A DNA stretch of 64,000 bases from a virus, in the IMG/VR virus record IMGVR_UViG_3300032293_000766, positions 62,001-126,000 of that record; one strand, given 5' to 3'. Positions 9,401 to 49,917 of the stretch are shown here, piece after piece. Numbering within the stretch: position 1 is the stretch's first letter; each line of letters begins with the position of its first letter. A model generated the notes under the pieces. It searched no databases, was not told the origin of the DNA, and saw only the letters and a program-made list of their open reading frames with translations. The position numbers were made by a program, and so were the translations under genes.

Positions 9401-11974
9401 GGAAGCATATCAGAAGTACAAACTAGTATATTTACCGGTAGAGCATCTAGTAACTCTATCAATATAAACTTTAGATCACGCAACGGCAATCTTGGCTTGC
9501 TAAATGGTACTAACTATGTTCCTCATACTAATAGAATATTGTCTGTATCTGGCATTTTACACCCAATCGGATATTATAGCACAACTACCACCAGATATAT
9601 TCCACAGTTTGCTTATTATAGAGAATTTGTTAAAGATGAATGGAGAATTACTTATGAGGGTCGCCAAGCATATGATGTAACAACGCCTCCAAGGTTTAGA
9701 GCTATAATGAATGATAATACTAGATATTGTCAAGACATATGCGATTATCATTCTGCTGCACAAATTTTACCAGAATTATATAGATCTTCGATAACAAGTC
9801 CAGAATACTATATCTTCTATTGTGATAGGTATGAGATATATAAAAATACAGTCGATGAAGATGGCGGTGGCGTATATCTAGAAGAAGATGGTGGCGAAAT
9901 GTTCAGCACTTACAGCTGCTCAAATAAAGAAATAGAAGATGGCCCAGTGGTTGCGGCGCATGAAAAGGAACATTTCTCTACATTTACTAATGGTTATAAT
10001 AGATCTAATATTGTTTTAATAGGCGATAAAAGCTTAATTCAGGGTGATTGTACAACTGATGTAAACAATTTATTAAAAACAAACGTAATAAATTTTATTA
10101 GAAGTCTTTATCCACCAAACCCACCACAGGAACTAATTGATCGCGGCGGCAAAAGATTTGAAGTTCAATCTAAGATTATGTCGCCAGAACGTGGTAGTAA
10201 TTCTAGATATTATTACGCAAGTGGCTTAAACTATCTTATTTCCTCTTACGGTAATGATAATGAAGATAGATCTAAATATAGATATAATCTTTCTAAATTT
10301 AATCCAAATGCTGTTATTAGAAGAGAAATACCAGATGATGGTCAAAATGCTGCAATAGAAGAATTTGGTAGCAATATAGCTAATCCTTGGCCAAGATGGG
10401 GAGCTTCTGGTATTGTAATAGAATATGACGCAAGTAATAATCCAAGAATAGTAGATTATTCTGAGTATTCTGACGCTATTAATGGCGGCATACCAAAGAC
10501 AGTCTCTAAGCTAGGCTATGACTTTATAGATATACATCACAACAATATTGCTATATCTGGTTTTGTAGGAGACTTGTTTGGATATTCCATTTCTCTTTAT
10601 AAAGATAGATTAGTTGTTGGATCTCCTTTTGCCGCTTTTAACAATCAAGATCAAGCTTTTAATTGGGAAAATATACAAAACAATCCATTGCGATCTGGTT
10701 TAACTATAGGAAACTTTGGTGGTGCTGGTGCGGTTTATGTATTTACAAATAGCAATAGTGGAGTTGATGAAATTGGTAATAATATGAGGTGGGAGCTAAA
10801 GCAAAAACTTAGACCAAAAACAATTAACGTTGGGCAAGACATAACTAGTGTCGCGTTATCACAAAATGAAGCAATATTAGGATCTAATATATATTCTTCT
10901 GGATTCTTAAGAGAATATAGTATGTCTCCAGATAAATTTGGATCTTCTATAGATATGGACGGCGACCTATTATTAATTGGAGCGCCGTGTCACGACTTTG
11001 ACAATTTAATACATAACATCTATAAAAGCGGGGAATTTGTTAGAAAGGAATTTGATTTCCAATTTGATATACCTCTACACAAAGTTTATGACTTAGGATC
11101 TGCTCAGAATAGGCAATTATTACCTAATAGCGGTGTACCTATTTTGAATAGGGGAGCAGTATTTAGTTATGAAAACGATATCATTAATTGGGATACTAAG
11201 GCCCAAGCTTGGACATTAAGGCAAAAATTAGTTCCACAGGGATATAGATCAAATAGTCAAAATTTCTCTGAAAATGACATGTTTGGAAACGCAGTGGCAA
11301 TCGAAAGAGTAGATAGAAAAGATGCTAAATATAACGCATTTGTTACCGCGTCAAATCATAAGTATGGTTTATCTACTAGTTCTGGTATTAATAATGCTGG
11401 GTCTATATACACTTACGACGCTATGATTAGAAATCAACCTCCAGCAATTAGTAGTAAAAATATGTGGTTAGACGCCAAAATCTTTTCTGATGGTAAAAAT
11501 AACTCTAATCTTAATATGTATATCAACAAAGAAATACACACTCAAACTAACCAAAGTATTATTTCTACAGGCTTAGTTTTCTCTAATAAAGACGGTGAAA
11601 TCTATTTAGAAGGTTCGGGTTTTGATGGAAATACATACGGTAACATCTCTAATAGACCCTATATATATAGTATTTACGGGGAAATGGTTAAAGGTACATT
11701 TATAGAAAATGGTATTAGGTTATTTAATATTGGGGCAGATGAGTTCTTACAAAAAAATGGAAGTATGACTTTACAAGTAGTGGCACCGGAAACCGCATAT
11801 GTGTATAGTACATTAGATTTATATACAGATAGCATTATTAGTAGTGGCGTAAGATCGTTGAATTTATTTAATAACGCCGGTACTGTTTCTGGAATTAATA
11901 ATTCACTCAATATTTACATTAGTGGACAAGGATTGTTGCCATCCACTTTATTACTTAGAGGACAAGGTAAATAA
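488..11974 (+). CDS. Giant tail-tip/receptor-binding-type protein with LamG, FG-GAP and vWA-like segments (3828 aa)
   Basis: One uninterrupted frame; RBS AAGGA about 7 nt before ATG 488. Seen in sequence: a LamG/concanavalin-like segment around residues 830-1000. Seven FG-GAP-like motifs (FG-S-A ... hydrophobic-GAP/GSP ... G-vYvF) lie near residues 1643, 1745, 2056, 2185, 3363, 3483 and 3598. Between blades 2 and 3 is a candidate vWA beta-strand with a MIDAS-like DxSxS (D1923, S1925, S1927). Between blades 4 and 5 are two Rossmann/GATase-like units (about 2300-2340 and 2735-2795), and a third similar strand-turn lies near 3174. FG-GAP repeats form beta-propellers in integrins and adhesins. 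Composition is Ser/Gly/Asn/Tyr-rich with few Cys. Position after the tape measure suggests a tail-tip or host-contact protein, acting outside the cell. The function is inferred; the N-terminal 800 residues are not recognised. Confidence 0.6.
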   Translation: MPTFCFCSSRLDGEGPIPIVASSFLEADLTVQMSYSPKFETFSNFGLYIKSLGLTRLIAEASIPQQNYNITHSVVSALLTNASISDNINVELYSKSNFSTDSEFIALADKISGNIFEDNIEQLDNDNFFAAPVNGTQKLYPVQDLITSYNGQVLVNEKLQTSDLFNSINGGIFVGDFRSDGRTISDTLSYILPSSVNIGGHYRYKAVVENPRLTPKESRLFIRAAAPLFGSNDTDESIPRYTISNIKFEDPSGNLIIQYRDIEVRGDANFDNAPENISYTTYITRPIKNNAILATQDINYPILNSNGDYTLTFDIIIDSNDAPFNLGFNEGFDDDIPNDNVIIDEDDYLSIGSPFSTISQEAINPINSIRISEIEIFNFGAANIVNDTYLNCYTEVDLIGERLERFLSPQILLPYDHNNRIHPSVNTIWASSPDSSGVRLFNTNQELSNQIVGKIINDSDDDYIELVSSSILDSGKLHLVFTHKTLESLLVYRGGAFRELSNSFSLAELVNLPPINEYFLVDEVYLRVKAKKAIGSRDYAIDVVGYSDDKLLNVTSQVGGFLQNDIGGSGSIPYVSGFAPTNSLGLSSESISDNYQYYQRDERLNVGGDHYRLSPNIVNSTSFREYKIPLKIYQDIGRLGQPQEYGLSNYFESLYLDIYPLPSGASISSIQLVVKYKPSNGLNMHTMGEPQYNQKNNLRLFPRDVLYPSNNLPLSYIDLIPHAYDTPTTFKQNYSRRWRGAEGISTSSFKQSNFDDFGFERSYLNSPFISSNYEFKDISNNLVIPDKYTSGSGVANHTINKLENIGWRFNSNSLFNQPTPYRTIDWTSISGYETHALRGKISDSFDCAIRMSGSNSIDFQPFESSGGFATYIRFSPDKDNNFQSGVLFSHYNTSNELLFLVGYSSGYLFAQAKNSSGNFISLYDNTIYSNYSYPLNVVLTYDNNLSTLNLCTKNELDNLPIKIFTANNFTIANGSGSLLLGGFNSFITDFGFSNQCNLLTVDSNSNDKDVGIYRFFDAITNNKAVNHKLSTFIDESLDSWSFGEFRHRDFASSEFSTLSKRDGYDFIYFDIKNDGLPYAQKINTPLASGFSSSNLSYHSQIENDFLRIHLSDAPDNFYAAAVRLSKTLPQGYDFVEDALLVETVLEYTSSGNVIWPNGKTGPKLIVSLYTTNKDPSSYSAKNFGLINRGVHYLDSKDAIVMLQTGFDFNSFVDDSESWSMFPEEKRITEFNHKYFSKDLDDMFIQYDIEYPSGNPYYSNLRINTVNVSLDSYISKKQNFQTSVDIITNGAQYEFNFLNFVVSPHEENVQSLILHVDGCPIYSLDPAYLSTYIAGASGVEDISLPLYIGAFTESSFGSDGDLFGSLFPNAMDLYISGQYVENEFLVMRTQAPGLFVYKMNYRLPLVTFDKFSYSNNALPLFIRPEIADELIFRVNSTFNLYTEVTQITVLNSYLNLNTANYPTIYSNDASLNSYIESRYAYDGLKQGKKQFLWNGIDTGLEIEFDDNFYANIPVGNEIRGVELICFGDCSRSGTCIEKGIYTHETQWTEDRCVDGGIFRAKSTYTNPTASGFGNTIGYSGNYYGIRKYTGLVPSAPYFISAKSLTGNDDFNLVPPKFEEWEYGTNDNVAFSGTKIVAPNRIENAQFGYSIATAKNVAVVGAPKETVYDNGSGVDNAGALYVYRRLDEPTLNSGSLSSDKTGWGFEAKLTLPSGYILDYPIPYGTTSPIPGLPIPLTKWNVGQEGRELGTSVAIGVNNDIKSYGENNRQIIVAGGPKAEFTRTFDDITTNKVKACIIVFADEFNPNDDGYWQNMYGFDRQIGEKTNRNNTLYKYYARPPLEIETKILVIQPTGAFSEIYYSNFRRKNYLYHTTIPRTNNKQYQLNKAAIDNTMLSGVINLFLEAFQPNSGIIHNNIPVTIGIFCDNSKSLSRQSVQPLISNFTNWYREYSYASGLKNFYQVPTSGNVYEFFPDFNLAEDWRAMSNIILDNLLDTGRISNSNETFLFAEDFGLDAVNTNLSEFNVLPDLGGRVYIFEKESGYWNVIQEISSTNDVKYNGFGHSVNISDDTLGITIGSPYTNESCYSLRYDDSVKSSIYSNLGNWLNYRGKISLRSQYNQFTGSNYDRGLKIYDFLSAKEKFDYRRDLEFWGGTLPEEYKVNFIYSYDDIPYTGGDYKGLVLSQLNTSRLGWSSALNEDGSIIAFGSPTDSLNRFDDTDLWYGGENNQLVFQGMYPAEQYAGSVRVFQSRDYYSHDGVVSFSRFGNIGEENGDLQILGNIFNGFGGNPLHRKMNFSEIEIPKSAGLAFITTPSLDAASDEIMQNIKDWLALGDRTLVLVGNDPVYEDNGLYSNSNDIVNKILSKLDSRMRLHPTKNRYESLIDSGNCASDLVNILPSYQPKGISPTYINFNNTFVGHGVSDIRMHIPEHATMYMPNCNLWNDKCSLPLAHRGDLRANFNYPYVGYRGRTQIGQLNWARLFDKDNKPEYARNWNRAIYNFPKQEPIPLLVAGEYVPSYTIHYPAEPATSGLFPIYRDVTVRLPDLIANDVQEFWYWDVLDSVNYKDQVVFKIDFENGSPTFNGDFFNPEPTNNRDAIIQGRAEIRNFDPVLGFELKYDRQVICSEEIYQTPSESNNNSQVVLLATVLSESKANLTSGSQDINIQFYTNLITINGEDLSKLRQSTYSCNLPSTIGIVGGWTGRKNFKDGYSESFLEELYGELPETQAEIKVFSETIPNYINVCWIPNTKNAQPTDQDITNLKNWLNLGGKKLIVTFDDSYESALAARNLSNKLGIKIQPIYLENRGRFANSYDRTISDRNTVIGQWISPNISQFNVQSKIIKSCLYDVDNTTNLIVNEFYPRNLFTTGFDPPVSFTPILGNFYHQSLDSIKDVLVAKYPIYDTVFFDIPAIWEIDGAASISIPVIPNSGYTVFINYLSEFENEKIPITIDIDNFRTSARPSNDPDDEDVVREFVTPSGSISEVQTSIFTGRASSNSININFRSRNGNLGLLNGTNYVPHTNRILSVSGILHPIGYYSTTTTRYIPQFAYYREFVKDEWRITYEGRQAYDVTTPPRFRAIMNDNTRYCQDICDYHSAAQILPELYRSSITSPEYYIFYCDRYEIYKNTVDEDGGGVYLEEDGGEMFSTYSCSNKEIEDGPVVAAHEKEHFSTFTNGYNRSNIVLIGDKSLIQGDCTTDVNNLLKTNVINFIRSLYPPNPPQELIDRGGKRFEVQSKIMSPERGSNSRYYYASGLNYLISSYGNDNEDRSKYRYNLSKFNPNAVIRREIPDDGQNAAIEEFGSNIANPWPRWGASGIVIEYDASNNPRIVDYSEYSDAINGGIPKTVSKLGYDFIDIHHNNIAISGFVGDLFGYSISLYKDRLVVGSPFAAFNNQDQAFNWENIQNNPLRSGLTIGNFGGAGAVYVFTNSNSGVDEIGNNMRWELKQKLRPKTINVGQDITSVALSQNEAILGSNIYSSGFLREYSMSPDKFGSSIDMDGDLLLIGAPCHDFDNLIHNIYKSGEFVRKEFDFQFDIPLHKVYDLGSAQNRQLLPNSGVPILNRGAVFSYENDIINWDTKAQAWTLRQKLVPQGYRSNSQNFSENDMFGNAVAIERVDRKDAKYNAFVTASNHKYGLSTSSGINNAGSIYTYDAMIRNQPPAISSKNMWLDAKIFSDGKNNSNLNMYINKEIHTQTNQSIISTGLVFSNKDGEIYLEGSGFDGNTYGNISNRPYIYSIYGEMVKGTFIENGIRLFNIGADEFLQKNGSMTLQVVAPETAYVYSTLDLYTDSIISSGVRSLNLFNNAGTVSGINNSLNIYISGQGLLPSTLLLRGQGK
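5558..5642 (+). repeat. Inverted repeat copy A (coding copy, inside the giant tail gene)
   Basis: This 85-bp segment encodes residues 1691-1718 of the giant protein (SGSLSSDKTGWGFEAK onward), at the junction of FG-GAP blades 1 and 2. It recurs as a reverse complement at 14564-14648 with 82 of 85 bases identical. The three differences (5587 G/A, 5611 G/A, 5614 C/T) all fall at third codon positions and are synonymous. Confidence 0.95.
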
Positions 11975-34416: not shown

Positions 34417-34731
34417 TTATTCTCTATTTTCTATATTACAAATGTCAAATTCATTGATTCTAAATACTATTCTATCGTCGTTTTTTTCTACTTGTCTTGC
34501 GCTAGCATTTATAGTTATTTTAGTTCCTTTGTTAGCAAATTTTGCAATAGTTTCAGCGCCGGTATGCCACGCCTCGCAGTAAATATGTGTAGCCAACTTT
34601 GTTTTTTCGCCAGTACTTTTAGCTTTTCTGTAAGAATAAACTACTAATATAAACTCTGCTAAAGTGACTCCATCCATTTTACTTATGATTGGATCTTCTG
34701 TCAAGTATCCAGTAAATAAACAAGAATTCAT
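34417..34731 (-). CDS. ssb: Single-stranded DNA-binding protein (SSB-like, 104 aa)
   Basis: OB-fold SSB pattern throughout: MNSCLFTGYLTEDPI at the start (canonical 'N.v.LiGrLt.dP'), AEFILVVYSYRKA, KLATHIYCEAWHTGAETIAKFANKGTKITINASAR, matching the 'i.v.aWg..Ae.....KG..v.v.G.l' core. It is short, with no acidic C-terminal tail for partner binding. Start supported by GGAG upstream, 1 nt after the polymerase stop. This is the second SSB of the window (the other is at 63328-63675); location in the polymerase block indicates a replication role. Confidence 0.75.
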   Translation of the reverse strand: MNSCLFTGYLTEDPIISKMDGVTLAEFILVVYSYRKAKSTGEKTKLATHIYCEAWHTGAETIAKFANKGTKITINASARQVEKNDDRIVFRINEFDICNIENRE

Positions 34732-34732
34732 T

Positions 34733-36292
34733 CTATGTCTCCATTATTTTTTCAATTATTAACGAATCGTTTTTACCCTTTGTATTACAGCATAAGACTA
34801 AATTATTACCTTCATAAAGAACGTACTTATACTTTTCTTTGACTGACGGAAAAGCTACAACATTATCTAGTATGCAAGTATCATCTTCAATAGTCAAAAA
34901 TGCCATTTTTTGTCCTTTAGATTCTCCATTTTTTATGGTGTATTCTGATATTAGTTTTATATTGGCTACTATACAAATATTACCACCCTTTTTGCCATTT
35001 ACAATTTCTTTACATGTTGTATTAGCTAAAGATGTATCAGCTGTTTCTACTTTTGTTAGAGTTATGGGGCAACCTAGGAATTTGATTTCTTGATCAATAA
35101 TCCACTTAGTACTATCTTCTAGACTGTATGGTGGATTAAGGAGTAGTTGAATTTCATTTTCTACAACTTGTTGCCTTTCTTTTTTACTAGTTCCCCCACC
35201 CAGCTTCTTAGTTGGTGCTAATGATTTAAGGGCTTCTAGTAAATTAGGCCATAGCATTGTATTATACTCCTGTGATAACCATTTTTGCTCTGATGAAGTT
35301 AAAGTTCTAAAAATTTCATATTCATATAATGCCCTTGTTCTACTAATAGACCCATTAAAGTCTCTAAAAAAGCCTACAGAAGCTAAAGACTTAAATGCTG
35401 TAGAGCTTATCTTTTCTCCAAGATATAGCAATATTTCCAGCCATGTAAATTTTGTTATCTTCTTAGACTTTTCTAGTTCCACTGAATGTATTGCCGCTAT
35501 TACAGCATCCCCAGTTTTACCAGAAAGAGATTTAATATCTTTGATGCCAAAGAAAATTTTCCCGTCTTTTATGTTAAACTTTTCTTCGAAATTGTTTAGG
35601 CTAGGAGTTGCCGCTTGAATATCAAATAGTTTTGCTTCTGAGACTAATTCATATATTTCTTGATGTGGATCTTGTTTTTCTATAGCGTGATACAAATATG
35701 ATAAGAAAAATTCTTTTGTATTATGAGCTTTATAGTAGGCACTCCAATATGAACAAACCGCGTATGAAACGCTGTGAGATTTATTAAAGGCATATCTTGA
35801 TGACTTTTCGATCCATCCGAATATCTGCTCTGCCTCTTCCTTAGAAACGATCCCAACGCGCTCTGCGCCAGCTATAAATGATTTTTTGACTTCATTCATA
35901 AGATCGGCCTTCTTTTTTCCAATGGCCTTACGAAGAACGTCAGCTTCTTGTAGGTTAAATCCAGCTATTTTTTCTGCAATACGCATGGACTGTTCTTGAT
36001 AAACTAAAACTCCATATGTTGGCTTTAGTATATCTTCTAATGATGAATGTAGGTATGTAACTTCTTCTCTACCATGTTTTCTATCTACATAGTGTTGAGT
36101 CATAGACTTTCCATCTAACATAGACTTAAGAGTTCCCGGCCTTATAATTGCTATAAGTGCTGATAACTCTTCTATATTATTTGGTGCTAATTTTTTTGAC
36201 CAAGATTTACCTAGATTGCTTTCAAGCTGAAAGACGCCTTTAGTTCTTCCTTCAGCAAAAAGCTTCCAAGTTTTTTCATCATTATATTCCAT
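34733..36292 (-). CDS. dnaE: DNA polymerase III alpha, C-terminal half (fingers to OB fold), split gene
   Basis: The 519-residue protein begins MEYNDEKTWKLFAEGRTKGVFQLES, which in E. coli DnaE is internal sequence shortly after the third catalytic Asp. Conserved landmarks follow: IIRPGTL, YVDRKHGREEV, PTYGVLVYQEQ, LRKAIGKKK (121-128), YAFNKSHSVSYA (168-179), then a helix-hairpin-helix region and a C-terminal OB-like part (GQKMAFLTIEDDT). None of the three catalytic Asps is here; they are in the separate N-terminal gene. The start overlaps the endonuclease-like gene's stop as TAATG. No intein residues are present at either end. It must assemble with the N-terminal half to form a polymerase. 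Confidence 0.9.
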   Translation of the reverse strand: MEYNDEKTWKLFAEGRTKGVFQLESNLGKSWSKKLAPNNIEELSALIAIIRPGTLKSMLDGKSMTQHYVDRKHGREEVTYLHSSLEDILKPTYGVLVYQEQSMRIAEKIAGFNLQEADVLRKAIGKKKADLMNEVKKSFIAGAERVGIVSKEEAEQIFGWIEKSSRYAFNKSHSVSYAVCSYWSAYYKAHNTKEFFLSYLYHAIEKQDPHQEIYELVSEAKLFDIQAATPSLNNFEEKFNIKDGKIFFGIKDIKSLSGKTGDAVIAAIHSVELEKSKKITKFTWLEILLYLGEKISSTAFKSLASVGFFRDFNGSISRTRALYEYEIFRTLTSSEQKWLSQEYNTMLWPNLLEALKSLAPTKKLGGGTSKKERQQVVENEIQLLLNPPYSLEDSTKWIIDQEIKFLGCPITLTKVETADTSLANTTCKEIVNGKKGGNICIVANIKLISEYTIKNGESKGQKMAFLTIEDDTCILDNVVAFPSVKEKYKYVLYEGNNLVLCCNTKGKNDSLIIEKIMET

Positions 36293-36627
36293 TATATTTT
36301 TCCTAGTAAATAATTCAAAGCATTTACCACACCCTCTATATTATCTCCAAGCTTACCAAGCCCAGTATTACAACGCTCACATATCCACCCTCTAAATTTA
36401 TTAGTTTTGTGATCATGATCTAGACACCATTTAAGTGGAACTTTTTTACAACACTCGCACAATTCTGGTTTATCTGGAGCATTTTTATGCAAATCTCTCC
36501 TAATGGACGAATGTTTCTTGATACAACTTCTACATCGCATATCTAACTTATCTTTGTACATACTATGTCTAGGAAATTGATCTAAAGACTTTTTTAATTG
36601 ACAGTAAATACATACTTTATTTGACAT
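36292..36627 (-). CDS. Endonuclease VII-like (His-Me finger) protein
   Basis: Start taken at ATG 36627 (MSNKVCIYCQLKK), because the longer frame to 36657 lies inside the exonuclease gene; the chosen start overlaps it by 11 nt. CxxC pairs near the N-terminus (CIYCQ ... CRSCIKKHSS) and CECCKK are followed by WCLDHDHKTNKFRGWICERCNTGLGKLGDN, the signature of the recombination endonuclease VII family (T4 gp49), including His-Asp-His and zinc Cys. These enzymes cleave branched DNA; relatives also act as homing endonucleases. It sits between the two halves of the polymerase gene, suggesting it caused or profits from the split. Confidence 0.85.
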   Translation of the reverse strand: MSNKVCIYCQLKKSLDQFPRHSMYKDKLDMRCRSCIKKHSSIRRDLHKNAPDKPELCECCKKVPLKWCLDHDHKTNKFRGWICERCNTGLGKLGDNIEGVVNALNYLLGKI

Positions 36628-37297
36628 AAAGATTACCATTAGCAAAGGCTTTTTCAAATTCTATATTTTGATAAACGGCTCTATGAGTTTTTAGCAATTT
36701 GATGAATATATTGGCAGTGTCTTTTACGTCTTGTAGTGCGTCGTGAGCATTTTCTGAACTCAATCCCATCTTTTCTCTTAATGAATCCATGCTAATAGAT
36801 TTAACACTAGGATCTCCCTCCGTCCACATGAAAATATTGTCCATTAGATCAACTTTGTAAACTTTACTAAACAGTTTAGCGTTGTCTTTTGTTTTATCCC
36901 AAGGGCCGAATTCTTTGCAAAGTCTATTTATAATGATCAAATCAAAACCAACAATGTTGTATCCTACTGGTATTGGATTAAAAAATGGCTCACCCTTCCA
37001 ATTATATTGATCTACAAACTTGGTGAACTTTGTCCACACTGACTTTAGCAATGGGGCTTCTGCTAATTTCTCTCTCGTTTTACCAGTTATTTTTAAAGCG
37101 CCATCTTCTATAGGGTCTAATCCAGCTGCGATTGCCTCTTCATCATCTAGTAATGGTCTTATTTCACTATTAAATGATCCTTTTACAGAAAGATCTCTTC
37201 CATCTAAAGCAAGTGCTGCAATTTGTGTTGGTTGAGTCTTATGTGGATTACGTGACCCTGTTTCAAAGTCAAAGACAATAAAATCTCTATTAGCCAT
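36617..37297 (-). CDS. DnaQ-like 3'-5' exonuclease (DEDDh)
   Basis: 226 residues with the DEDDh exonuclease pattern: motif I IVFDFETGSR (D10, E12), motif II VGYNIVGFDL (D119), motif III ENAHDALQDVKDT (H185, D190). These residues bind two metals and remove mispaired 3' ends. As a separate protein it is expected to supply proofreading, replacing the epsilon subunit; the PHP domain of the partnering polymerase half has lost its metal-binding residues. The gene overlaps the polymerase N-terminal half by 8 nt and the endonuclease-like gene by 11 nt, so all four are translationally coupled. Confidence 0.85.
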   Translation of the reverse strand: MANRDFIVFDFETGSRNPHKTQPTQIAALALDGRDLSVKGSFNSEIRPLLDDEEAIAAGLDPIEDGALKITGKTREKLAEAPLLKSVWTKFTKFVDQYNWKGEPFFNPIPVGYNIVGFDLIIINRLCKEFGPWDKTKDNAKLFSKVYKVDLMDNIFMWTEGDPSVKSISMDSLREKMGLSSENAHDALQDVKDTANIFIKLLKTHRAVYQNIEFEKAFANGNLYVK

Positions 37298-38870
37298 GTA
37301 TATTTTCCTTTTTTGTAATATGTTCTACATACATTATCTTATCAAGTAAAGTCAAACCTAATACATCAAACTTTACATGACCTAGAGCTTCTAGGTCTAC
37401 CATTTCTAATCCTGCAATTTTTTCTGATGAACCCTTTTGTTTGACCATAGGACATACTTTATATAGTGGCTCTTTAGATATAACAACACCAGCAGCATGT
37501 TTACCTTGAGTTTTAAACGTACCCTCTAACTTAATTGCTTGTTCGAAGTATTCAGCATAGTCTCCATCTAATGATCCATCATCATTTATTCTACAAAAAT
37601 CTTGAAGCTCATCTGCATTATTGATCAACGCCCACCTAATAATAGACCTATCATCGTCATCCATTTCTGCTAACTGATCTGATATTTCTGCTTCATTTGG
37701 TATAATTTTTGTTATTGCGTTCATTTCAGCAAAAGAGCAAGCTTCATTTACTCTCAATACTTCTTTTATGGCACTTCTCCCCTGTAGTCTTCCAAAAGTA
37801 ATCATCTGGCTAACCTTATCGTGACCATATTTATCTTTAAGATATTTGATTACATCATCTCTATGATTAGCGGGAACGTCCATATCTATATCTGGCAAAG
37901 AAATATGATCTTCTGTATTTCTACCAGCATTATAGAATCTAGCAAACAAAAGATCAAATTCAATGGGGTCTATTTGAGTAACACCAATTAAATATGATAT
38001 TAAACAACCAGCCGCCGATCCTCTTCCCGGCCCAGACAACCAACCGTTATCATGAACGTGTTTGATTATATCTTGCACGATTAAGAAATATCCGAATAGA
38101 TTTGCGTTTTTGATTACGTCAAACTCTTCTTTGAATCTATCTAAATATTTCTGTTTGTTTACTTCGTCAGATACTTTCCCCTTATCAATTAGTAATGATT
38201 TCCAGCCTTTTCTACATAGCTCTTTCAAATACTCTTCTTCTGACAAATTATTTGGACATTTGAATTTTGGCAGAATTGGCTTATTTAGGATATCATAATC
38301 TTCGCACTGATTGTAAACATCTTCAAGCACACGGGACACTTTACCAGCTACTACATATTTATTTTCATCTGTAAAAAACTGGGATACATTAGGATCAAGC
38401 TCATTCTTGCGTATTTGCTTTGCAACACTTGGTAATGTACTCTTTAATTCTGAGCATATTAATATTCTATGCAAATTGGCTTGATCTTTGTGGCAATAGA
38501 AGCTTGTGGGTATGCCAATATCATGCTCAAGATATATAAGATTATTCTGTTTTAATAACCCCTTAATGTGTTTGATATCTATGTTATTGTCGTCATCTAT
38601 TAATGACATAATTTCAATGAGATTATTCCAGCCGTTCTTATTTTTGGCGTATAAGTTATAGCCGTCGAATGAACAGCCCAAAATAGGCTTAATCCCAACT
38701 TCTTTGCAAGCTTTATAAAAAGCCACACACCCAGATATGGTTTTATAGTCAGTAATACCACAAGCTGGATAACCATTCTCTCTACATAGCTTGGCTAGTT
38801 CTTTGGGCTTAGAAAAGCCTTTCAGCAAACTATAATGCGTATAATTATTTAATGGAAACCAATTCAACAT
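37290..38870 (-). CDS. dnaE: DNA polymerase III alpha, N-terminal half (PHP and catalytic palm), split gene
   Basis: 526 residues starting with a PHP domain (about 1-110). The usual HxH is replaced (LNNYTHYSLLKG), TDH is TDY and GCE is GCS, so PHP metal binding is probably lost. The palm has SGPGRGSAAGCLISYL (279-294), the catalytic LPDIDMD (D327, D329), KTQGKHAAGVVIS and VKFDVLGL (D502), giving all three catalytic Asps. The protein ends 24 residues after D502, in what is a loop in E. coli DnaE, just before the fingers; the missing part is a separate gene at 34733-36292. RBS GAGG before ATG 38870. It follows the Ig-like gene's terminator. Confidence 0.9.
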   Translation of the reverse strand: MLNWFPLNNYTHYSLLKGFSKPKELAKLCRENGYPACGITDYKTISGCVAFYKACKEVGIKPILGCSFDGYNLYAKNKNGWNNLIEIMSLIDDDNNIDIKHIKGLLKQNNLIYLEHDIGIPTSFYCHKDQANLHRILICSELKSTLPSVAKQIRKNELDPNVSQFFTDENKYVVAGKVSRVLEDVYNQCEDYDILNKPILPKFKCPNNLSEEEYLKELCRKGWKSLLIDKGKVSDEVNKQKYLDRFKEEFDVIKNANLFGYFLIVQDIIKHVHDNGWLSGPGRGSAAGCLISYLIGVTQIDPIEFDLLFARFYNAGRNTEDHISLPDIDMDVPANHRDDVIKYLKDKYGHDKVSQMITFGRLQGRSAIKEVLRVNEACSFAEMNAITKIIPNEAEISDQLAEMDDDDRSIIRWALINNADELQDFCRINDDGSLDGDYAEYFEQAIKLEGTFKTQGKHAAGVVISKEPLYKVCPMVKQKGSSEKIAGLEMVDLEALGHVKFDVLGLTLLDKIMYVEHITKKENIHG

Positions 38871-40393: not shown

Positions 40394-41419
40394 TTATCCT
40401 GGGGCTTCATAAAAGCCTATATTAAAGTTTTCTCTAGTACAATTGGCAACAGTTTGTTCCATGCCATGTTTTTTAATGTGGTTCTCTATATACATACACA
40501 TACTTTCGTCGGTATCTTTCCACTTGTTCTTGCAAAAATGGCATAGCTTAGTGCATTTCCAGTTACTTCTATCTACTGATATTGGCTTAGGCTTATTATT
40601 CTCTTGAATATCCTTAAATCTTACTCTTAGCATATCAAGAAATTTGCTACGATCTGATTTGTCAAAACACATTGAAAATGGTCCGCCATCTTTAATGAAA
40701 AATATAGACATAATAGCCTGATCATACTCAGGAAATAGTTTAGAAATGGCATAATTGTATAGTAATAATTGAGGATCTGAACATAGCTTTTCATAGTCTT
40801 TCTCTGCTCCTGTTGCCCAATCTAGTCTTCTTCCAGTTTTATAATCTACAACCTCAATTATTTTTTCATCTACTTTTGTTACCAAGTCTATAGTTCCCTT
40901 AATTGCTAATTGTCCATTAACAACTTGTCCATTTGGTAATTCGTAGGTATATTTAGCCCAATCTTCTTCAATTGGAATATCAAAATGTGGCTCTGCCGCT
41001 ACAATGTTTCTATTCCTAGGATCAAACTGCCCATTATTAAACTCTAGTGTAGTCCAAACTAAACTTTCACACATTTCTTTGTCGAGCTTGGTAAAGTCAT
41101 GATGTGAATTAGCTGAATAGTAACCAAAACTTTTATCTAATAATTCTGGAACTATCTTATCTGAGAATAGATGTTGTTTATCTATACTAATCTTACCAAT
41201 ATTATCATCAACGAACAGTAACTTTTTTGCTTTGCTGCTAGTGTCTTGATGAGTTTTTTTCAAGGATGCTAATAATTCTAAAGTCTTATGAACAATTGTG
41301 CCAATGTCTGCCTTCTTACCACTTATAGCTTGATGACCAAGCACATAGGTGATAAAATATTGCATTTGGCAATAATCGTAATTATTATAACTAGATGATC
41401 TGATATATGTTACTAGCAT
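40394..41419 (-). CDS. RecB/Cas4-like PD-(D/E)XK exonuclease with probable Fe-S cluster
   Basis: 341 residues. Nuclease residues: H44 in GTIVHKTLE, D178 in IKGTIDLV, D192 and K194 in EVVDYKTGRR, then a QLLLYNYA helix (Q217), the order of RecB-family nucleases. Four Cys, C17 near the N-terminus and C289, C293 and C296 near the C-terminus (CTKLCHFC), match the Fe-S clamp of AddB/Cas4-like enzymes. Predicted activity: DNA end processing during recombination-dependent replication. It is the last gene of the replication operon, joined to the dNMP kinase by TAATG. Confidence 0.8.
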   Translation of the reverse strand: MLVTYIRSSSYNNYDYCQMQYFITYVLGHQAISGKKADIGTIVHKTLELLASLKKTHQDTSSKAKKLLFVDDNIGKISIDKQHLFSDKIVPELLDKSFGYYSANSHHDFTKLDKEMCESLVWTTLEFNNGQFDPRNRNIVAAEPHFDIPIEEDWAKYTYELPNGQVVNGQLAIKGTIDLVTKVDEKIIEVVDYKTGRRLDWATGAEKDYEKLCSDPQLLLYNYAISKLFPEYDQAIMSIFFIKDGGPFSMCFDKSDRSKFLDMLRVRFKDIQENNKPKPISVDRSNWKCTKLCHFCKNKWKDTDESMCMYIENHIKKHGMEQTVANCTRENFNIGFYEAPG

Positions 41420-42159
41420 TATGATTTCCAGATGTGGTTAATTTTGTCTAATTCTTTACAAGTGTCTGTAATAGAAAAGTTTTCATTGTCTATTACATAG
41501 TCAAAAAGCGACCAATCAAACTTGTCTTTATCTAGTGCTGACTCACACTCTACTGTAGATTTACATACGTTCCTTGTTAATCTAATTACTATGCCGCCAT
41601 TATCTTTAATTGCCTGAACTTCATTTGGAAATCTAACATCTGGTATGATAGCTAGATTAGAGTTCTCATTAAATATTTTCGTAATGGTCGTATTAACCCA
41701 AGCATCATTTTTGATCTTTCTAACAATGCTAGTTCCAAAATATTCTAAGAATTCTCTATATGTTAGATAGCCAGACTTGTTTTCTTGTGTGGGCAAATCT
41801 TCCCACTGTATTTTAGTCTTTGCATTCTTTTGCTTATCAGTACCATAAAGGTTTTCAATCTTTAGGCCAAAAAGCGATGCGGACATATCCTTCAAAGAGT
41901 CTGCAAAATGATATACTTTAACATAAGGCCACAACTCATATTCTGCGTAGTTTGTAAATTCCTTGTCCTTTCTACAGACATCAAATATGCCCCAATCTTT
42001 TTGCATATTCTTATCAGTAGTCAAGATTTCCAAAGCTCCATCAGTGTTAATCTTGAAATCTTCCACCATGCTTCTTTCTTTTAAAACTAAGCCGTTTATG
42101 TAATTTGCTGCTGTATTTTTACCAGACTGCTTTCTTCCAGATATGCCAACAATTTTCAT
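41419..42159 (-). CDS. Deoxynucleoside monophosphate kinase
   Basis: 246 residues starting with a P-loop, GISGRKQSGKNTAANYI (8-16 core). The segment YHFADSLKDMSASLFGL matches the acceptor-nucleotide region of T4 gp1-type dNMP kinases, and YLTYREFLEYFGTSIVR and AIIPDVRFPNEVQAIKDNGGIVIRLTR are strongly diagnostic for that family. It phosphorylates dNMPs to dNDPs for the phage dNTP pool. Coupled upstream to the primase by ATGA and downstream to the nuclease by TAATG. Confidence 0.85.
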   Translation of the reverse strand: MKIVGISGRKQSGKNTAANYINGLVLKERSMVEDFKINTDGALEILTTDKNMQKDWGIFDVCRKDKEFTNYAEYELWPYVKVYHFADSLKDMSASLFGLKIENLYGTDKQKNAKTKIQWEDLPTQENKSGYLTYREFLEYFGTSIVRKIKNDAWVNTTITKIFNENSNLAIIPDVRFPNEVQAIKDNGGIVIRLTRNVCKSTVECESALDKDKFDWSLFDYVIDNENFSITDTCKELDKINHIWKS

Positions 42160-43172
42160 ATTAAATCCTTAATTTGTGGAATAAATTCTTTTCTTATTAA
42201 CTCTACACTCATCTCTCCAATATCCTTACATGATATTTGTGGAAAAATAAGATTATAGCTGCGATTAAACTTACGAAAAATTTCTATCTTGCACTCATTT
42301 CCAGCTTGATCATTATCAGTTACTACTACGATATTAATAATAGGTAGTTTGTGCAAAAGTTCTTCGTGAGATTCTATAATAGACTTGCCAAAAATACCAA
42401 CAGCATTTTCTATACCGGCCTCATAAAGTCTCCAGATATCACTTTGTCCTTCAGTAATAATGACGGTTTTGGTGCTACATATTTTATTATACGCTCTGTG
42501 GTAGTTGTATAGGTATTTGTTTTTGTTAAAACCGCTTGGGTAAAATAAAAACTTTGGGTCTTTATACTCCTTAATAGATCTTCCTAGCAATCCTACTATA
42601 CTGCTACCATCGTGATTATGTATTGGTATAATAGATCTGTCTTTTAAGTTTTCATGCTTACAACAATCGCTTACGCCAAAATGACTCAAGGTGTTTTCTA
42701 AAAATCCTCTACCTATAAAATATTTTGACGCTTTTGTATACTGATATTCTACAATGCTATCACTTTCACTTGTATTTTTATCAGTAAATATTCTTACAAT
42801 ATCAAAGAATTCGTCGTTTACAACTTTATCTTTTTTGACTGAAGTAGTGGTTGATCTATCTAATTGCTTAATATTTGTATTAACCCATTTTAACACTTCT
42901 TTGAATTCAACATTATATCCACACCTTTTAGATAAGGCTCCCCTTATTAATCCAAAAACATCATTACTAAAATCTTGCTGACAGTCTCTAGTCCAACATT
43001 TCCATATGTGCTTTTTAGTAGAAAAAGAAAACCCTCTTGGGTTGTCACTCTCTTCGTGTGCTGGACAATTAGAATAAATATTGTCAGAAAACTTTTCATA
43101 ATCCATGTCAAGTTTCTGAAGAACTAATTCTATATTTGTATTTAGTTCAGCTTTCAGGTTCTGTAAGTTCAT
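42156..43172 (-). CDS. DnaG-type primase (zinc finger and TOPRIM)
   Basis: 338 residues. A CHC2-type zinc finger is visible at C36, H39, C59 and C64 (SNCPAHEES ... WKCWTRDC). A core domain includes KYFIGRGFLENTLSHFGV and IIPIHNHDGSIVG-like strands (SIIPIHNHDGSSIVGLLGRS). The TOPRIM domain has TEGQSDIWRL (E241) and VTDNDQAGN (D286, D288), the metal-binding acids. It synthesises RNA primers at the fork. There is no C-terminal helicase-interaction domain, but the helicase gene overlaps it by 26 nt directly upstream. Confidence 0.85.
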   Translation of the reverse strand: MNLQNLKAELNTNIELVLQKLDMDYEKFSDNIYSNCPAHEESDNPRGFSFSTKKHIWKCWTRDCQQDFSNDVFGLIRGALSKRCGYNVEFKEVLKWVNTNIKQLDRSTTTSVKKDKVVNDEFFDIVRIFTDKNTSESDSIVEYQYTKASKYFIGRGFLENTLSHFGVSDCCKHENLKDRSIIPIHNHDGSSIVGLLGRSIKEYKDPKFLFYPSGFNKNKYLYNYHRAYNKICSTKTVIITEGQSDIWRLYEAGIENAVGIFGKSIIESHEELLHKLPIINIVVVTDNDQAGNECKIEIFRKFNRSYNLIFPQISCKDIGEMSVELIRKEFIPQIKDLI

Positions 43173-44607
43173 TTATTATCTTCTTCATTGTGTCTTTGTC
43201 TAATAATCCAGAATCACCAACGGGTTGATTTTTAAATTCGTTTCTAGTTTTTAATTCTGTTAGTTTTGCATGTGATCCATCCATCTGCACATTAATGTAA
43301 TCACCGTCGTTTAATCCAGCACCATGTCTAGTAACAACTGTAACTAGTTTTCTATTTCCAGCTTTCGGCCCATCTTCTGCTAATTCTTCTGGAGACTTAA
43401 TCTTAAATATACTAAAAGATGTGCATAGCCATATTAGCCTGTCTGATCCGCTCACTGCATCCGTACTCTCTTTAGTTATGCCATCACGATTTAACTGAAC
43501 GAATGATAGACATGGTATATCAAGCTTAACACATAGATTATGAAGTGACGTAATTTGAAATCCTAATGCTTGATATTCTTGCATGTTACTATTAATTGAT
43601 TCAGAAGACATGAGCTTCAAGTAGTCATATATTATTAGGCATTCATTTGTTTGTCCACTGTCGTTTGTTTTGACTTCTTGAGTTACCCACCTTTTAATCA
43701 AATTGATTATTTGCTCAAAAGGTTTTCCAGCTACGCTAATGTAGCTATAGGGTATAGATGATAATTTTTTGACAGCTTCCTGTACCTTTTCGTTCTTCTC
43801 TCTGTTATCAACAAACTTACCAGTAGCTACTTCATTGATTGGCACCCCACTCAAATTAGCTATTAATCTATTCAAATGGTCTTCTTTAGACATTTCTGTA
43901 TCTAGCATAAGCACTGGGATATTCTTAGACGAAACATTTAACGCCACATTGTCAGCAAAAACGGATTTACCCACTTTTGGTCTAGCGGATACTAAGTCTA
44001 CGCATTTTCTCCTAAGACCTCCACCAATTGCTTCGTCGTATTTTTGAAATCCAGTTGGTATTCCTATGATATCGCATTTATTTTCTGATAAGAATTGAAT
44101 GTAATCATCTATATTACTTCCTATCTTTTCTGGATGTTCGCCACCATCATCTTCTCTCAAGAAGTCAGTCACTGGATTTTCTAGTATTCCTATAATGTCT
44201 GAAATTTTTTCAGTACCATCTATCTTTTCTATATCTTGATGGATTTTTTGAGTAAGCTTATGTATCTTTCTAGCAAACTCAAACTTCTTTATCTGTGCAG
44301 CGAATGGTAGTATGTTATCTGCATTGATTGGGAATACCATTAATGACTTTATATACTTTAATTCTTGCTCTGTATTTATAGCGTCTTCTAGACCTAAATA
44401 TTTAGCTGAAGCAAAAATTGATGGTATGTCTATTTTCTGATCGTTACTTATGATATTCTCTAAGCACCTATAGATAATTTGATTGTTTGTGTGATCAAAC
44501 GTCTCAACGGATATTAGATCGGAAACTGTTACGTATCCATCAATACCATGCTGGAGTATGCCAGCTAATACTGCCCTCTCTGCCCCAATATCATTTAGTT
44601 TTACCAT
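43147..44607 (-). CDS. dnaB: Replicative DnaB-like helicase
   Basis: 486 residues with the DnaB layout. An N-terminal helical domain begins NDIGAERAVLAGIL (analogous to 'P.s.eAE..vLG.il'). A linker precedes IGIPTGFQKYDEAIGGGLRRKCVDLVSARPKVGKSVFADNVA (Walker A about 208-216). The catalytic LMLDTEMSKEDHLNRL follows, then Walker B ECLIIYDYLKLM and sensor SFVQLNRDG, and an Arg-finger-type GSDRLIW region. It unwinds DNA 5'-3' as a hexamer. It overlaps the primase by 26 nt; the two probably act as a helicase-primase pair. Confidence 0.9.
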   Translation of the reverse strand: MVKLNDIGAERAVLAGILQHGIDGYVTVSDLISVETFDHTNNQIIYRCLENIISNDQKIDIPSIFASAKYLGLEDAINTEQELKYIKSLMVFPINADNILPFAAQIKKFEFARKIHKLTQKIHQDIEKIDGTEKISDIIGILENPVTDFLREDDGGEHPEKIGSNIDDYIQFLSENKCDIIGIPTGFQKYDEAIGGGLRRKCVDLVSARPKVGKSVFADNVALNVSSKNIPVLMLDTEMSKEDHLNRLIANLSGVPINEVATGKFVDNREKNEKVQEAVKKLSSIPYSYISVAGKPFEQIINLIKRWVTQEVKTNDSGQTNECLIIYDYLKLMSSESINSNMQEYQALGFQITSLHNLCVKLDIPCLSFVQLNRDGITKESTDAVSGSDRLIWLCTSFSIFKIKSPEELAEDGPKAGNRKLVTVVTRHGAGLNDGDYINVQMDGSHAKLTELKTRNEFKNQPVGDSGLLDKDTMKKIINELTEPES

Positions 44608-48831: not shown

Positions 48832-49508
48832 TATTTCTCCAAGGCATACAAAACTGCTCCTAGTATTCCATTCCTCTGTATATCATTATAGTCTAATTTG
48901 CATATACCAACACCGGGAACTTGAGATAATCTATCTATGCAGAAGTCTAATCCACTATCTCTATATAAGTCCGTCTGTTTAATATCTCCATTAATAATAA
49001 CCTTAGAGTCTTTACCCATTCTTGTAATGAACATTTTTATTTGTTCTAATGTACAATTCTGAGCTTCGTCTAATATCATATATGCATTATGAAATGTAGA
49101 CCCTCTCATGGTTTCTAGGGGTTCGAATCTAATTCTACGTTGATTAAAATATAAGCCAAACTTATCTCGTCCTAAGAAGTATTTTAAATTTTCTTCCATA
49201 GGTTGTAAGTATGGTTTGATTTTATCTCCTAACTCTCCCGGTAATGAACCAATGTCTTTACCTGTGCATACTAATGGTCTAGTAATAATTAATGTATCTA
49301 TTTCATCTCGTAGCAATCTTTGTGATGCTAATCCAGCAGCAATGAAAGATTTACCACTTCCAGACGGACCAGAACAAAAAATAATATCATTTTCTATAGT
49401 TAGTCTTATGTATTTTTTTTGATTCTCTGTCTTGGCTTCCAGTTGGTTTTGTTTAGGTTTTTTTTCTTCTTGACGCTTTTTTCTGTTGTTATGTGCCTGT
49501 GCTGCCAA
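48831..49508 (-). CDS. phoH: PhoH-like P-loop NTPase
   Basis: 225 residues. Walker A is FCSGPSGSGKSFIAAGLA (47-54), followed by DTLIITRPLVCTGKDIGSLPGELGDKIKPYLQPMEENL (very characteristic of PhoH), then Walker B MILDEAQN (147-150) and VIINGDIKQTDL. Phage PhoH proteins bind ATP and probably act on RNA; the role is not settled. No ATG fits: the best start is TTG 49508, with CGGGAG 8 nt upstream. It lies inside the dUTPase gene end (20-nt overlap). Confidence 0.85.
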   Translation of the reverse strand: MAAQAHNNRKKRQEEKKPKQNQLEAKTENQKKYIRLTIENDIIFCSGPSGSGKSFIAAGLASQRLLRDEIDTLIITRPLVCTGKDIGSLPGELGDKIKPYLQPMEENLKYFLGRDKFGLYFNQRRIRFEPLETMRGSTFHNAYMILDEAQNCTLEQIKMFITRMGKDSKVIINGDIKQTDLYRDSGLDFCIDRLSQVPGVGICKLDYNDIQRNGILGAVLYALEK

Positions 49509-49917
49509 AGCCGTTACTCCCGCGTTGCGAGGAACCTAATGATTCATGAGCCGTCATAATTACATGAGGAACCTCTTGGAATATCATCTGTGCGATTCTA
49601 TCCCCAGTACGTATAACAACATCATTGTCTGATGTGTTGTATAAACATACCATGATCTCTCCCCTATAGCCACTATCCACTACGCCAGCCAAAACATCTA
49701 TACCTTGTTTAACAGATAGGCCAGATCTTGGCCATATTAAACCAGCTAAATTGTCTGGCATTTGTAATGCTATCCCAGTATTAACGGTCTTTCTTTGTTT
49801 TGGTTCGATTATGACATCAATTGTAGAATATAAGTCAAATCCAGCGTCATTATTATTTGCCTTTGTTGGCACTTGTGCTAATACGTCTATTAACTTTACT
49901 TGTACTCCGTATATCAT
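49489..49917 (-). CDS. dut: dUTPase
   Basis: 142 residues with all five trimeric dUTPase motifs: NDAGFDLYS (24-31), PRSGLSVKQG (63-72), GVVDSGYRGEI (78-88), GDRIAQMIF (105-113) and the C-terminal RGSNGFGSTGT (132-142). It hydrolyses dUTP to dUMP, preventing uracil incorporation and supplying dUMP. ATGA overlap with the RNR small subunit upstream. Nothing unusual in the catalytic residues. Confidence 0.92.
   Translation of the reverse strand: MIYGVQVKLIDVLAQVPTKANNNDAGFDLYSTIDVIIEPKQRKTVNTGIALQMPDNLAGLIWPRSGLSVKQGIDVLAGVVDSGYRGEIMVCLYNTSDNDVVIRTGDRIAQMIFQEVPHVIMTAHESLGSSQRGSNGFGSTGT

What the first reader, a model, noticed from the sequence alone, without database searches (positions are those of the whole stretch)
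34733..38870. Pol III alpha split in the palm-to-fingers loop, with DnaQ exonuclease and endonuclease VII-like genes between the halves
The N half carries PHP and all three catalytic Asps and ends 24 residues after D502. The C half resumes at KGVFQLES with essentially nothing missing. Two further genes sit between them, and all junctions overlap (8, 11 and 1 nt), so expression is coupled. No intein sequence exists at the ends, and the cut differs from the cyanobacterial DnaE split-intein site (FNKSHS is intact in the C half). T4-like phages have gene 43 split around homing endonucleases; a Pol III version with proofreading exonuclease inside the split would be a new variant.
Basis: partly seen in the sequence, partly recalled or inferred. 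Interest (0 to 1): 0.82.

Follow-up and report, generated by a model that had tools for sequence, protein, structure and literature searches.

The report
Two-gene phage polymerase with inserted proofreader
A large group of uncultured phages encodes its main DNA-copying enzyme as two separate proteins, cut at one fixed place since an ancient ancestor, and in one branch the presumed proofreading exonuclease gene sits inside the cut while the enzyme's built-in editing site has decayed.

Summary
Minus-strand order: N half of Pol III alpha (526 aa), DEDDh exonuclease (226 aa), endonuclease VII-like protein (111 aa), C half (519 aa), with 8, 11 and 1 nt overlaps. It is no error or recent accident: about 160 distinct viral-metagenome relatives, down to ~43% identity, have the same cut with the exonuclease inside; none has both halves in one frame. 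On a tree the split arose once in this group (support 100), among phages with intact alpha. The exonuclease occupies the cut in one of two subclades; the other carries nothing (2 nt), macrodomain plus uracil glycosylase, or 5-11 kb of unrelated genes. So the split came first. The endonuclease VII gene is late, optional cargo (28 distinct relatives) with a discordant history, reusing the ATG that otherwise starts the C half. N, exonuclease and C co-evolve (r 0.93-0.96) under purifying selection. All nine PHP metal ligands persist in nearly all split relatives without this exonuclease but are eroded in the window's lineage. Best reading: non-covalent reassembly of alpha, with the exonuclease as proofreader (inferred). 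Similar cuts occur in phages Cuke, Fowlmouth and phiT1, and a minimal split Pol III was published, so this is a new variant of a known kind.

The parts
37290..38870 (-). N half of Pol III alpha, 526 aa: degenerate PHP domain + palm/thumb with catalytic D327, D329, D502
   Evidence: PF07733 1.6e-69, PF02811 1.2e-18; E. coli DnaE alignment; AlphaFold2 pLDDT 91.1, pTM 0.88, last helix 507-524; Foldseek to Taq/E. coli alpha, E 3e-33, TMq 0.70-0.74
36617..37297 (-). DEDDh (DnaQ/PolC-like) 3'-5' exonuclease, 226 aa, between the halves; presumed proofreading subunit
   Evidence: PF00929 6e-14; PHROG 192 'DNA polymerase exonuclease subunit' 1.1e-25; D10, E12, D119, H185, D190 conserved in 39 relatives; only RNase_T match in the 135 kb record
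37304..37310 (-). AAGGAAA, Shine-Dalgarno-like site 8 nt before the exonuclease ATG, inside the N-half gene
   Evidence: read from sequence; function inferred
36292..36627 (-). Endonuclease VII-like (HNH/His-Me fold) protein, 111 aa from ATG; optional mobile cargo
   Evidence: PF02945 4.3e-13; PHROG 2633 endonuclease VII 1.2e-22; absent from most relatives; distances to N/EXO/C correlate only r 0.30-0.35; single copy in the record
36617..36627 (-). 11-nt overlap ATGTCAAATAA: exonuclease stop and EndoVII start; in relatives without EndoVII the same ATG starts the C half
   Evidence: junction comparison
34733..36292 (-). C half of Pol III alpha, 519 aa: fingers, HhH, OB fold; no C-terminal tau-binding region seen
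   Evidence: PF17657 1.1e-47; E. coli DnaE from residue 592; NCBIfam DnaE 587-1052 of 1146; AlphaFold2 pLDDT 91.8, pTM 0.82; Foldseek to Taq alpha, E 4e-22
36301..36304 (-). AGGA, Shine-Dalgarno-like site 8 nt before the C-half ATG, inside the EndoVII gene
   Evidence: read from sequence; function inferred
34417..34731 (-). SSB-like protein directly after the C half (conserved neighbour)
   Evidence: PF00436 4.7e-8; same place in nearly all relatives
40394..44607 (-). upstream replication genes: DnaB-like helicase, DnaG-like primase, dNMP kinase, PD-(D/E)XK nuclease
   Evidence: Pfam; conserved synteny

Best explanation
This is a full-length phage Pol III alpha encoded as two polypeptides, cut once in a distant ancestor at the loop that joins the palm's last catalytic strand and following helix to the fingers. 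N half (PHP + palm/thumb, all three metal-binding Asps) and C half (fingers + HhH + OB) are translated from one overlapping operon and assemble non-covalently into the active polymerase. The intergenic point became a permissive slot. In the window's subclade a DEDDh exonuclease settled there and, by inference, serves as the proofreading subunit, after which the ancestral PHP metal site decayed. The EndoVII-like gene is a later, optional homing-type insertion between exonuclease and C half that took over the C half's old start codon. Shown: the split, its single origin in this group, its age relative to the inserts, selection, co-inheritance, PHP erosion only in this exonuclease lineage among the split clade. 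Inferred: non-covalent assembly, proofreading by this exonuclease, mobility of EndoVII.
For: Same split in about 160 distinct relatives, never fused within the clade. Tree: all split members of the group are one clade (42 rows, 100), the exonuclease carriers one subclade (28 rows, 100), the exonuclease-less ones another (14 rows, 99); fused phage alphas lie outside. N-EXO, N-C, EXO-C distance correlations 0.938, 0.925, 0.957 over 67 genomes; pN/pS 0.03-0.10 against the closest relatives. Catalytic residues of alpha invariant and of the exonuclease conserved. Each half is predicted to fold with high confidence and matches known alpha. No PolA, PolB or beta clamp in the record, so this is the only polymerase found. 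PHP ligands: HHDHEHCDH complete in nearly all fused alphas and exonuclease-less split relatives with a complete N terminus; C7->H throughout the rest of the exonuclease clade; 0-1 of 9 in the window's lineage. The exonuclease family is missing from 15 of 16 genomes of the sister subclade. E7: discordant distances (r 0.30-0.35), faster evolution, exact reuse of the C-half ATG.
Against: No complex could be modelled, so contact between the halves is not shown. The PHP/exonuclease association rests on few independent events: outside this clade, RNase_T was found in 2 of 3 long records with a lost PHP site (L223, L243; not Y1) plus L269, and in 3 of 15 with an intact one. Much of the exonuclease clade still keeps 8 of 9 PHP ligands, so exonuclease and PHP coexisted for long. 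No copy of E7 elsewhere in the record and no cleavage-site test.
Confidence: 0.75

Rival explanations
1. The exonuclease is in the split by chance of gene order and acts elsewhere (recombination, DNA degradation, RNA primer removal); alpha is edited by PHP, by a host epsilon, or not at all.
For: Other genes with no link to replication also lie in the split: FkbM and TylF methyltransferases, glycosyl- and formyltransferases, ThyX; macrodomain + UDG in L201.
Against: Of all inserts only the exonuclease is fixed in its clade; it evolves with alpha (r 0.94-0.96), is annotated by PHROG as polymerase exonuclease subunit, and the PHP site is dead in the window's lineage.
Confidence: 0.22
2. The split was made by a homing endonuclease insertion (EndoVII or an HNH), as in T4-like gene 43, and the endonuclease still drives the spread of the arrangement.
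For: Endonucleases sit at both junctions in some relatives: EndoVII, HNH in L006, L020, L023, L040, L046 (HNH read from sequence, no Pfam hit). Bacillus phage KLEB27-3 has an HNH endonuclease between two alpha pieces cut about 40 aa further downstream.
Against: Endonucleases are absent from most members; L269 has halves 2 nt apart; the sister subclade holds quite different genes. E7 phylogeny does not follow alpha. An ancient endonuclease, since lost, cannot be excluded as the first cause.
Confidence: 0.1
3. The halves are joined again: protein trans-splicing by a split intein, or an intron that carries the exonuclease.
For: Split inteins do occur in this very gene in relatives, at GPGRG|S.
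Against: No intein sequence at this break in any relative read; no Rfam intron; each half has its own start and SD-like site; the gap runs from 2 nt to over 8 kb with changing content.
Confidence: 0.03
4. The two halves are relics or have separate jobs, and the host polymerase copies the phage.
For: The PHP domain is eroded; no clamp gene was found in the record.
Against: All catalytic and fingers motifs invariant, strong purifying selection on both halves, conserved replication operon with helicase, primase and SSB.
Confidence: 0.07
5. Sequencing or assembly error in one contig.
For: None.
Against: Same layout in about 160 distinct relatives from many metagenomes.
Confidence: 0.005

Closest known systems
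Split minimal Pol III alpha of group 2.2 jumbo phages (Iyer et al. 2021, PMC7824862)
   Same: Phage Pol III alpha in two polypeptides, thought to reconstitute one enzyme.
   Different: That one is a minimal catalytic core, in distantly located genes, beside a family B polymerase. Here alpha has PHP, palm, fingers, HhH and OB, the halves share an operon with an exonuclease between them, and no PolB or PolA was found in the record. The two cut points were not compared by sequence.
Two-gene DnaE of Mycobacterium phages Cuke and Fowlmouth; Rossellomorea phage phiT1
   Same: Cut at the same palm/fingers loop, full-length halves.
   Different: Separate origin on the tree, no exonuclease inside (adjacent genes, or a 49-aa ORF), PHP ligands 9/9.
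PolC of low-GC Gram-positives
   Same: A DEDDh exonuclease is physically built into a C-family polymerase (exonuclease in the PHP domain; PMC3919608).
   Different: Here alpha is DnaE-like, and the exonuclease is a separate gene placed at the palm/fingers cut.
Bacterial DnaE + epsilon (DnaQ)
   Same: Separate DEDDh proofreader; PHP metal site degraded where epsilon serves, as in several Proteobacteria (PMC3919608).
   Different: The proofreader gene lies inside a split alpha gene; EXO resembles PolC exonuclease and ExoI only weakly.
T4-like gene 43 split by homing endonucleases; cyanobacterial split-intein DnaE; fractured genes with split inteins (Dassa et al. 2009)
   Same: Polymerase genes broken in two with endonuclease genes in or near the break.
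   Different: No intein at this break, and the endonuclease is not ancestral to it. A true split intein does break the N half again in some relatives.

Membership tests
C-family (Pol III alpha, DnaE type) polymerase | PHP, palm with three catalytic Asps, fingers, in DnaE order | tested here: met
   split over two chains
C-family (Pol III alpha, DnaE type) polymerase | intact PHP metal site (nine ligands) | tested here: not met
   0 of 9 in the window; 9 of 9 in most fused relatives. Not obligatory for the family: E. coli lacks it too
DEDDh exonuclease / epsilon-type proofreader | D-E-D-H-D catalytic residues | tested here: met
   D10, E12, D119, H185, D190
DEDDh exonuclease / epsilon-type proofreader | binds alpha and edits its errors | not testable with these tools
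   only gene position, co-inheritance and PHP decay speak for it
Cyanobacterial-type split-intein DnaE | intein N and C fragments at the break | tested here: not met
   halves end on alpha sequence; no intein at this break; TIGR01445 hits only at the other break in relatives
PolC | exonuclease inserted in PHP, OB N-terminal to PHP | tested here: not met
   exonuclease lies after the palm as its own gene, OB is C-terminal
Homing-endonuclease-split polymerase (T4 gene 43 type) | endonuclease inside the break in split members, absent with an intact gene in close relatives | tested here: not met
   no intact close relatives; most split members lack an endonuclease
Split minimal Pol III of jumbo phages (Iyer 2021) | minimal core without PHP, genes far apart, PolB present | tested here: not met
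   PHP, HhH and OB present; halves in one operon; no PolB
Endonuclease VII family (36292-36627) | PF02945 profile match | tested here: met
   49.4 bits against a cut-off of 23.6
Endonuclease VII family (36292-36627) | acts as homing endonuclease / resolves junctions | not testable with these tools
   mobility inferred from presence/absence and discordant distances

The most novel reading that the evidence does not exclude
A three-chain polymerase core (N half, exonuclease, C half) made by co-translational assembly from one overlapping operon: an ancient break in alpha opened a slot, a DEDDh exonuclease moved in, became the resident editor, and so allowed the ancestral PHP proofreading site to die. 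It would be a 'PolC in pieces' that evolved independently.
Probability: 0.45. Interest if true: 0.78.

Novelty: new variant of a known kind. Interest (0 to 1): 0.62.

Why it matters
C-family replicases are essential and rarely tolerate a break without an intein to mend it. Here is a natural, long-lived, non-intein cut that fixes where the enzyme can be divided (useful for split-polymerase design) and gives a dated series: intact gene, bare split, split with assorted genes, split with an exonuclease, PHP decay. It makes the question of how PHP editing is replaced by a DEDDh exonuclease testable in one phage group, and shows how a split gene becomes a landing slot for mobile endonucleases and other cargo.

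Tried and rejected
Sequencing error or pseudogene: rejected by conservation. Group I/II intron: no Rfam match. Intein at this break: none. Recoded stop: N half, EXO and E7 all end in TAA and the exonuclease lies between, so readthrough cannot join the halves. E7 as cause of the split: rejected as the general cause, since E7 is optional. Search of bacterial genome contigs with the C half found no relatives, so no host or prophage link. Exonuclease against isolated phages: only 28-29% matches in Bacteroides and Chryseobacterium phages, not followed up. A weak 'terminase' hit at 48993-49541 turned out to be a PhoH-type ATPase. L268's insert has an intein-like ORF (183 aa, my reading, no search done), left open. 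Papers: searches for split DnaE / split Pol III in phages gave only Iyer et al. 2021 as relevant; the library is open-access only, so earlier reports in subscription journals cannot be excluded.
Full report
OBSERVATION. The window is part of a 135,211-base virus record. Overlaps are 8, 11 and 1 nt. Upstream are DnaB-like helicase, primase, dNMP kinase and a PD-(D/E)XK nuclease. Against E. coli DnaE the N half is matched to residue 574 and the C half from 592; D327, D329, D502 are D401, D403, D555. At most about eight linker residues are missing.

THE SPLIT IS CLADE-WIDE AND OLD. Searches of viral contigs gave loci in which I located N, EXO, EndoVII and C by profile. About 160 distinct C-half sequences lie in loci with the exonuclease inside the split, and no ORF in that group carries both halves. 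Intact alphas (61 distinct) appear only as distant relatives. Trees of the joined halves (quick search, SH-aLRT support) put all split members of the group in one clade (42 rows, 100), made of an exonuclease subclade (28 rows, 100) and a second subclade (14 rows, 99). In the second subclade the distance from N to C is 2 nt in L269 (its first branch), 1.0 kb in L201 (macrodomain + uracil-DNA glycosylase), 2.0 kb in L268, about 5 kb in L253 and L262, and about 8-11 kb in most others (my arithmetic from record coordinates). Thus the split came first and its contents later.

INDEPENDENT PARALLELS. Mycobacterium phages Cuke and Fowlmouth (adjacent genes) and Rossellomorea phage phiT1 (49-aa ORF between) have alpha cut at the same loop but fall elsewhere on the tree. 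Bacillus phage KLEB27-3 is cut about 40 residues further on, with an HNH endonuclease between. So this loop is a recurrent place to divide a C-family polymerase.

SELECTION AND CO-INHERITANCE. Over 67 non-redundant genomes pairwise distances of N, EXO and C correlate at 0.93-0.96; E7 correlates with them at only 0.30-0.35 in 16 carriers. Against L005, pN/pS is 0.09 (N), 0.07 (EXO), 0.10 (C) and 0.16 (E7). Distances share ancestry, so the high values alone do not prove contact; the contrast with E7 is what tells.

THE ENDONUCLEASE VII GENE IS LATE CARGO. In relatives without it the exonuclease's last 11 bases (such as ATGTTAAATGA) hold the start codon of the C half. In the window the same place (ATGTCAAATAA) starts EndoVII, and the C half has a new ATG overlapping EndoVII's stop. 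L098's glycosyltransferase starts at the same place. The N-EXO junction likewise takes up HNH-like endonucleases, FkbM methyltransferases or unknown ORFs. Only one EndoVII match exists in the record.

A SECOND BREAK, MENDED BY AN INTEIN. In L003/L004 (98% identical to the window in the C half), L006, L048, L049, L069 the N half is broken again at GPGRG|SAAGC, with intein N and C fragments (TIGR01445 35.5 bits in L049, cut-off 24.5) and in L003, L048, L049 an endonuclease-like ORF between. This 'fractured gene' form (Dassa et al. 2009, known to me and cited in PMC10448857) shows the contrast: the break near the active site carries an intein, the palm/fingers break never does.

PROOFREADING. The exonuclease keeps all DEDDh residues and is the only RNase_T match in the record. 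The nine PHP metal ligands (HHDHEHCDH by my motif mapping; the nine positions are described in PMC3919608) are complete in nearly all fused alphas and exonuclease-less split relatives with a full N terminus. In the exonuclease subclade Cys7 is His, and in the window's lineage 0-1 of 9 remain. The exonuclease family is absent from 15 of 16 genomes of the sister subclade. Outside the clade the association of RNase_T with a lost PHP site is only suggestive (2 of 3 long records with a lost site, plus L269 with a changed one; against 3 of 15 with an intact site). I infer that the exonuclease took over editing; this was not tested.

STRUCTURE. AlphaFold2 models of the separate halves are confident (pLDDT 91.1 and 91.8) and match solved Pol III alpha. 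The N half ends with the helix after the D502 strand; the C half starts just before the next helix. A complex could not be predicted here.

COMPARISON AND NOVELTY. Iyer et al. 2021 describe a minimal Pol III alpha split into distant genes in some jumbo phages beside PolB. The present system is a different, fuller form: complete alpha, operon-linked, exonuclease in the cut, sole polymerase found. I rate it a new variant of a known kind.

Noticed in passing
L003 3576-6340; L006 4346-6311; L048, L049, L069: N half of alpha broken a second time by a split intein at GPGRG|SAAGC, in L003/L048/L049 with a PD-(D/E)XK-looking endonuclease ORF (DUF7487/TnsA-like) between the intein halves: a three-piece polymerase.
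   Followed up: partly
L201 4882-5917: In the sister subclade the split of alpha holds a macrodomain protein and a uracil-DNA glycosylase in overlapping frames, in place of the exonuclease.
   Followed up: partly
L253 1022-6001; L262 887-5977: About 5 kb of methyltransferase and glycosyltransferase genes lie between the alpha halves.
   Followed up: no
L059 4256-7896; L067 5272-7896: A 2.6-3.6 kb insert between exonuclease and C half has ThyX and a pseudopilin-like ORF ([34 protein letters not shown]) of a type I recall from Planctomycetes; a possible host hint.
   Followed up: no
window 37290-38870: The PHP domain of the window lineage is about 100 aa shorter than in sister lineages (526 against about 624 aa N half) and has lost every metal ligand.
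   Followed up: yes
L268 5410-5961: ORF with an intein-like (Hint) look just before the C half, alone, without a matching extein; unexplained.
   Followed up: no
L147 7953-9966; L044 3205-4933: N half broken by other means (insert with loss of part of the gene, or frameshift); may be decay or assembly error.
   Followed up: no
window 488-11974: A 3828-aa open reading frame on the plus strand, not examined.
   Followed up: no
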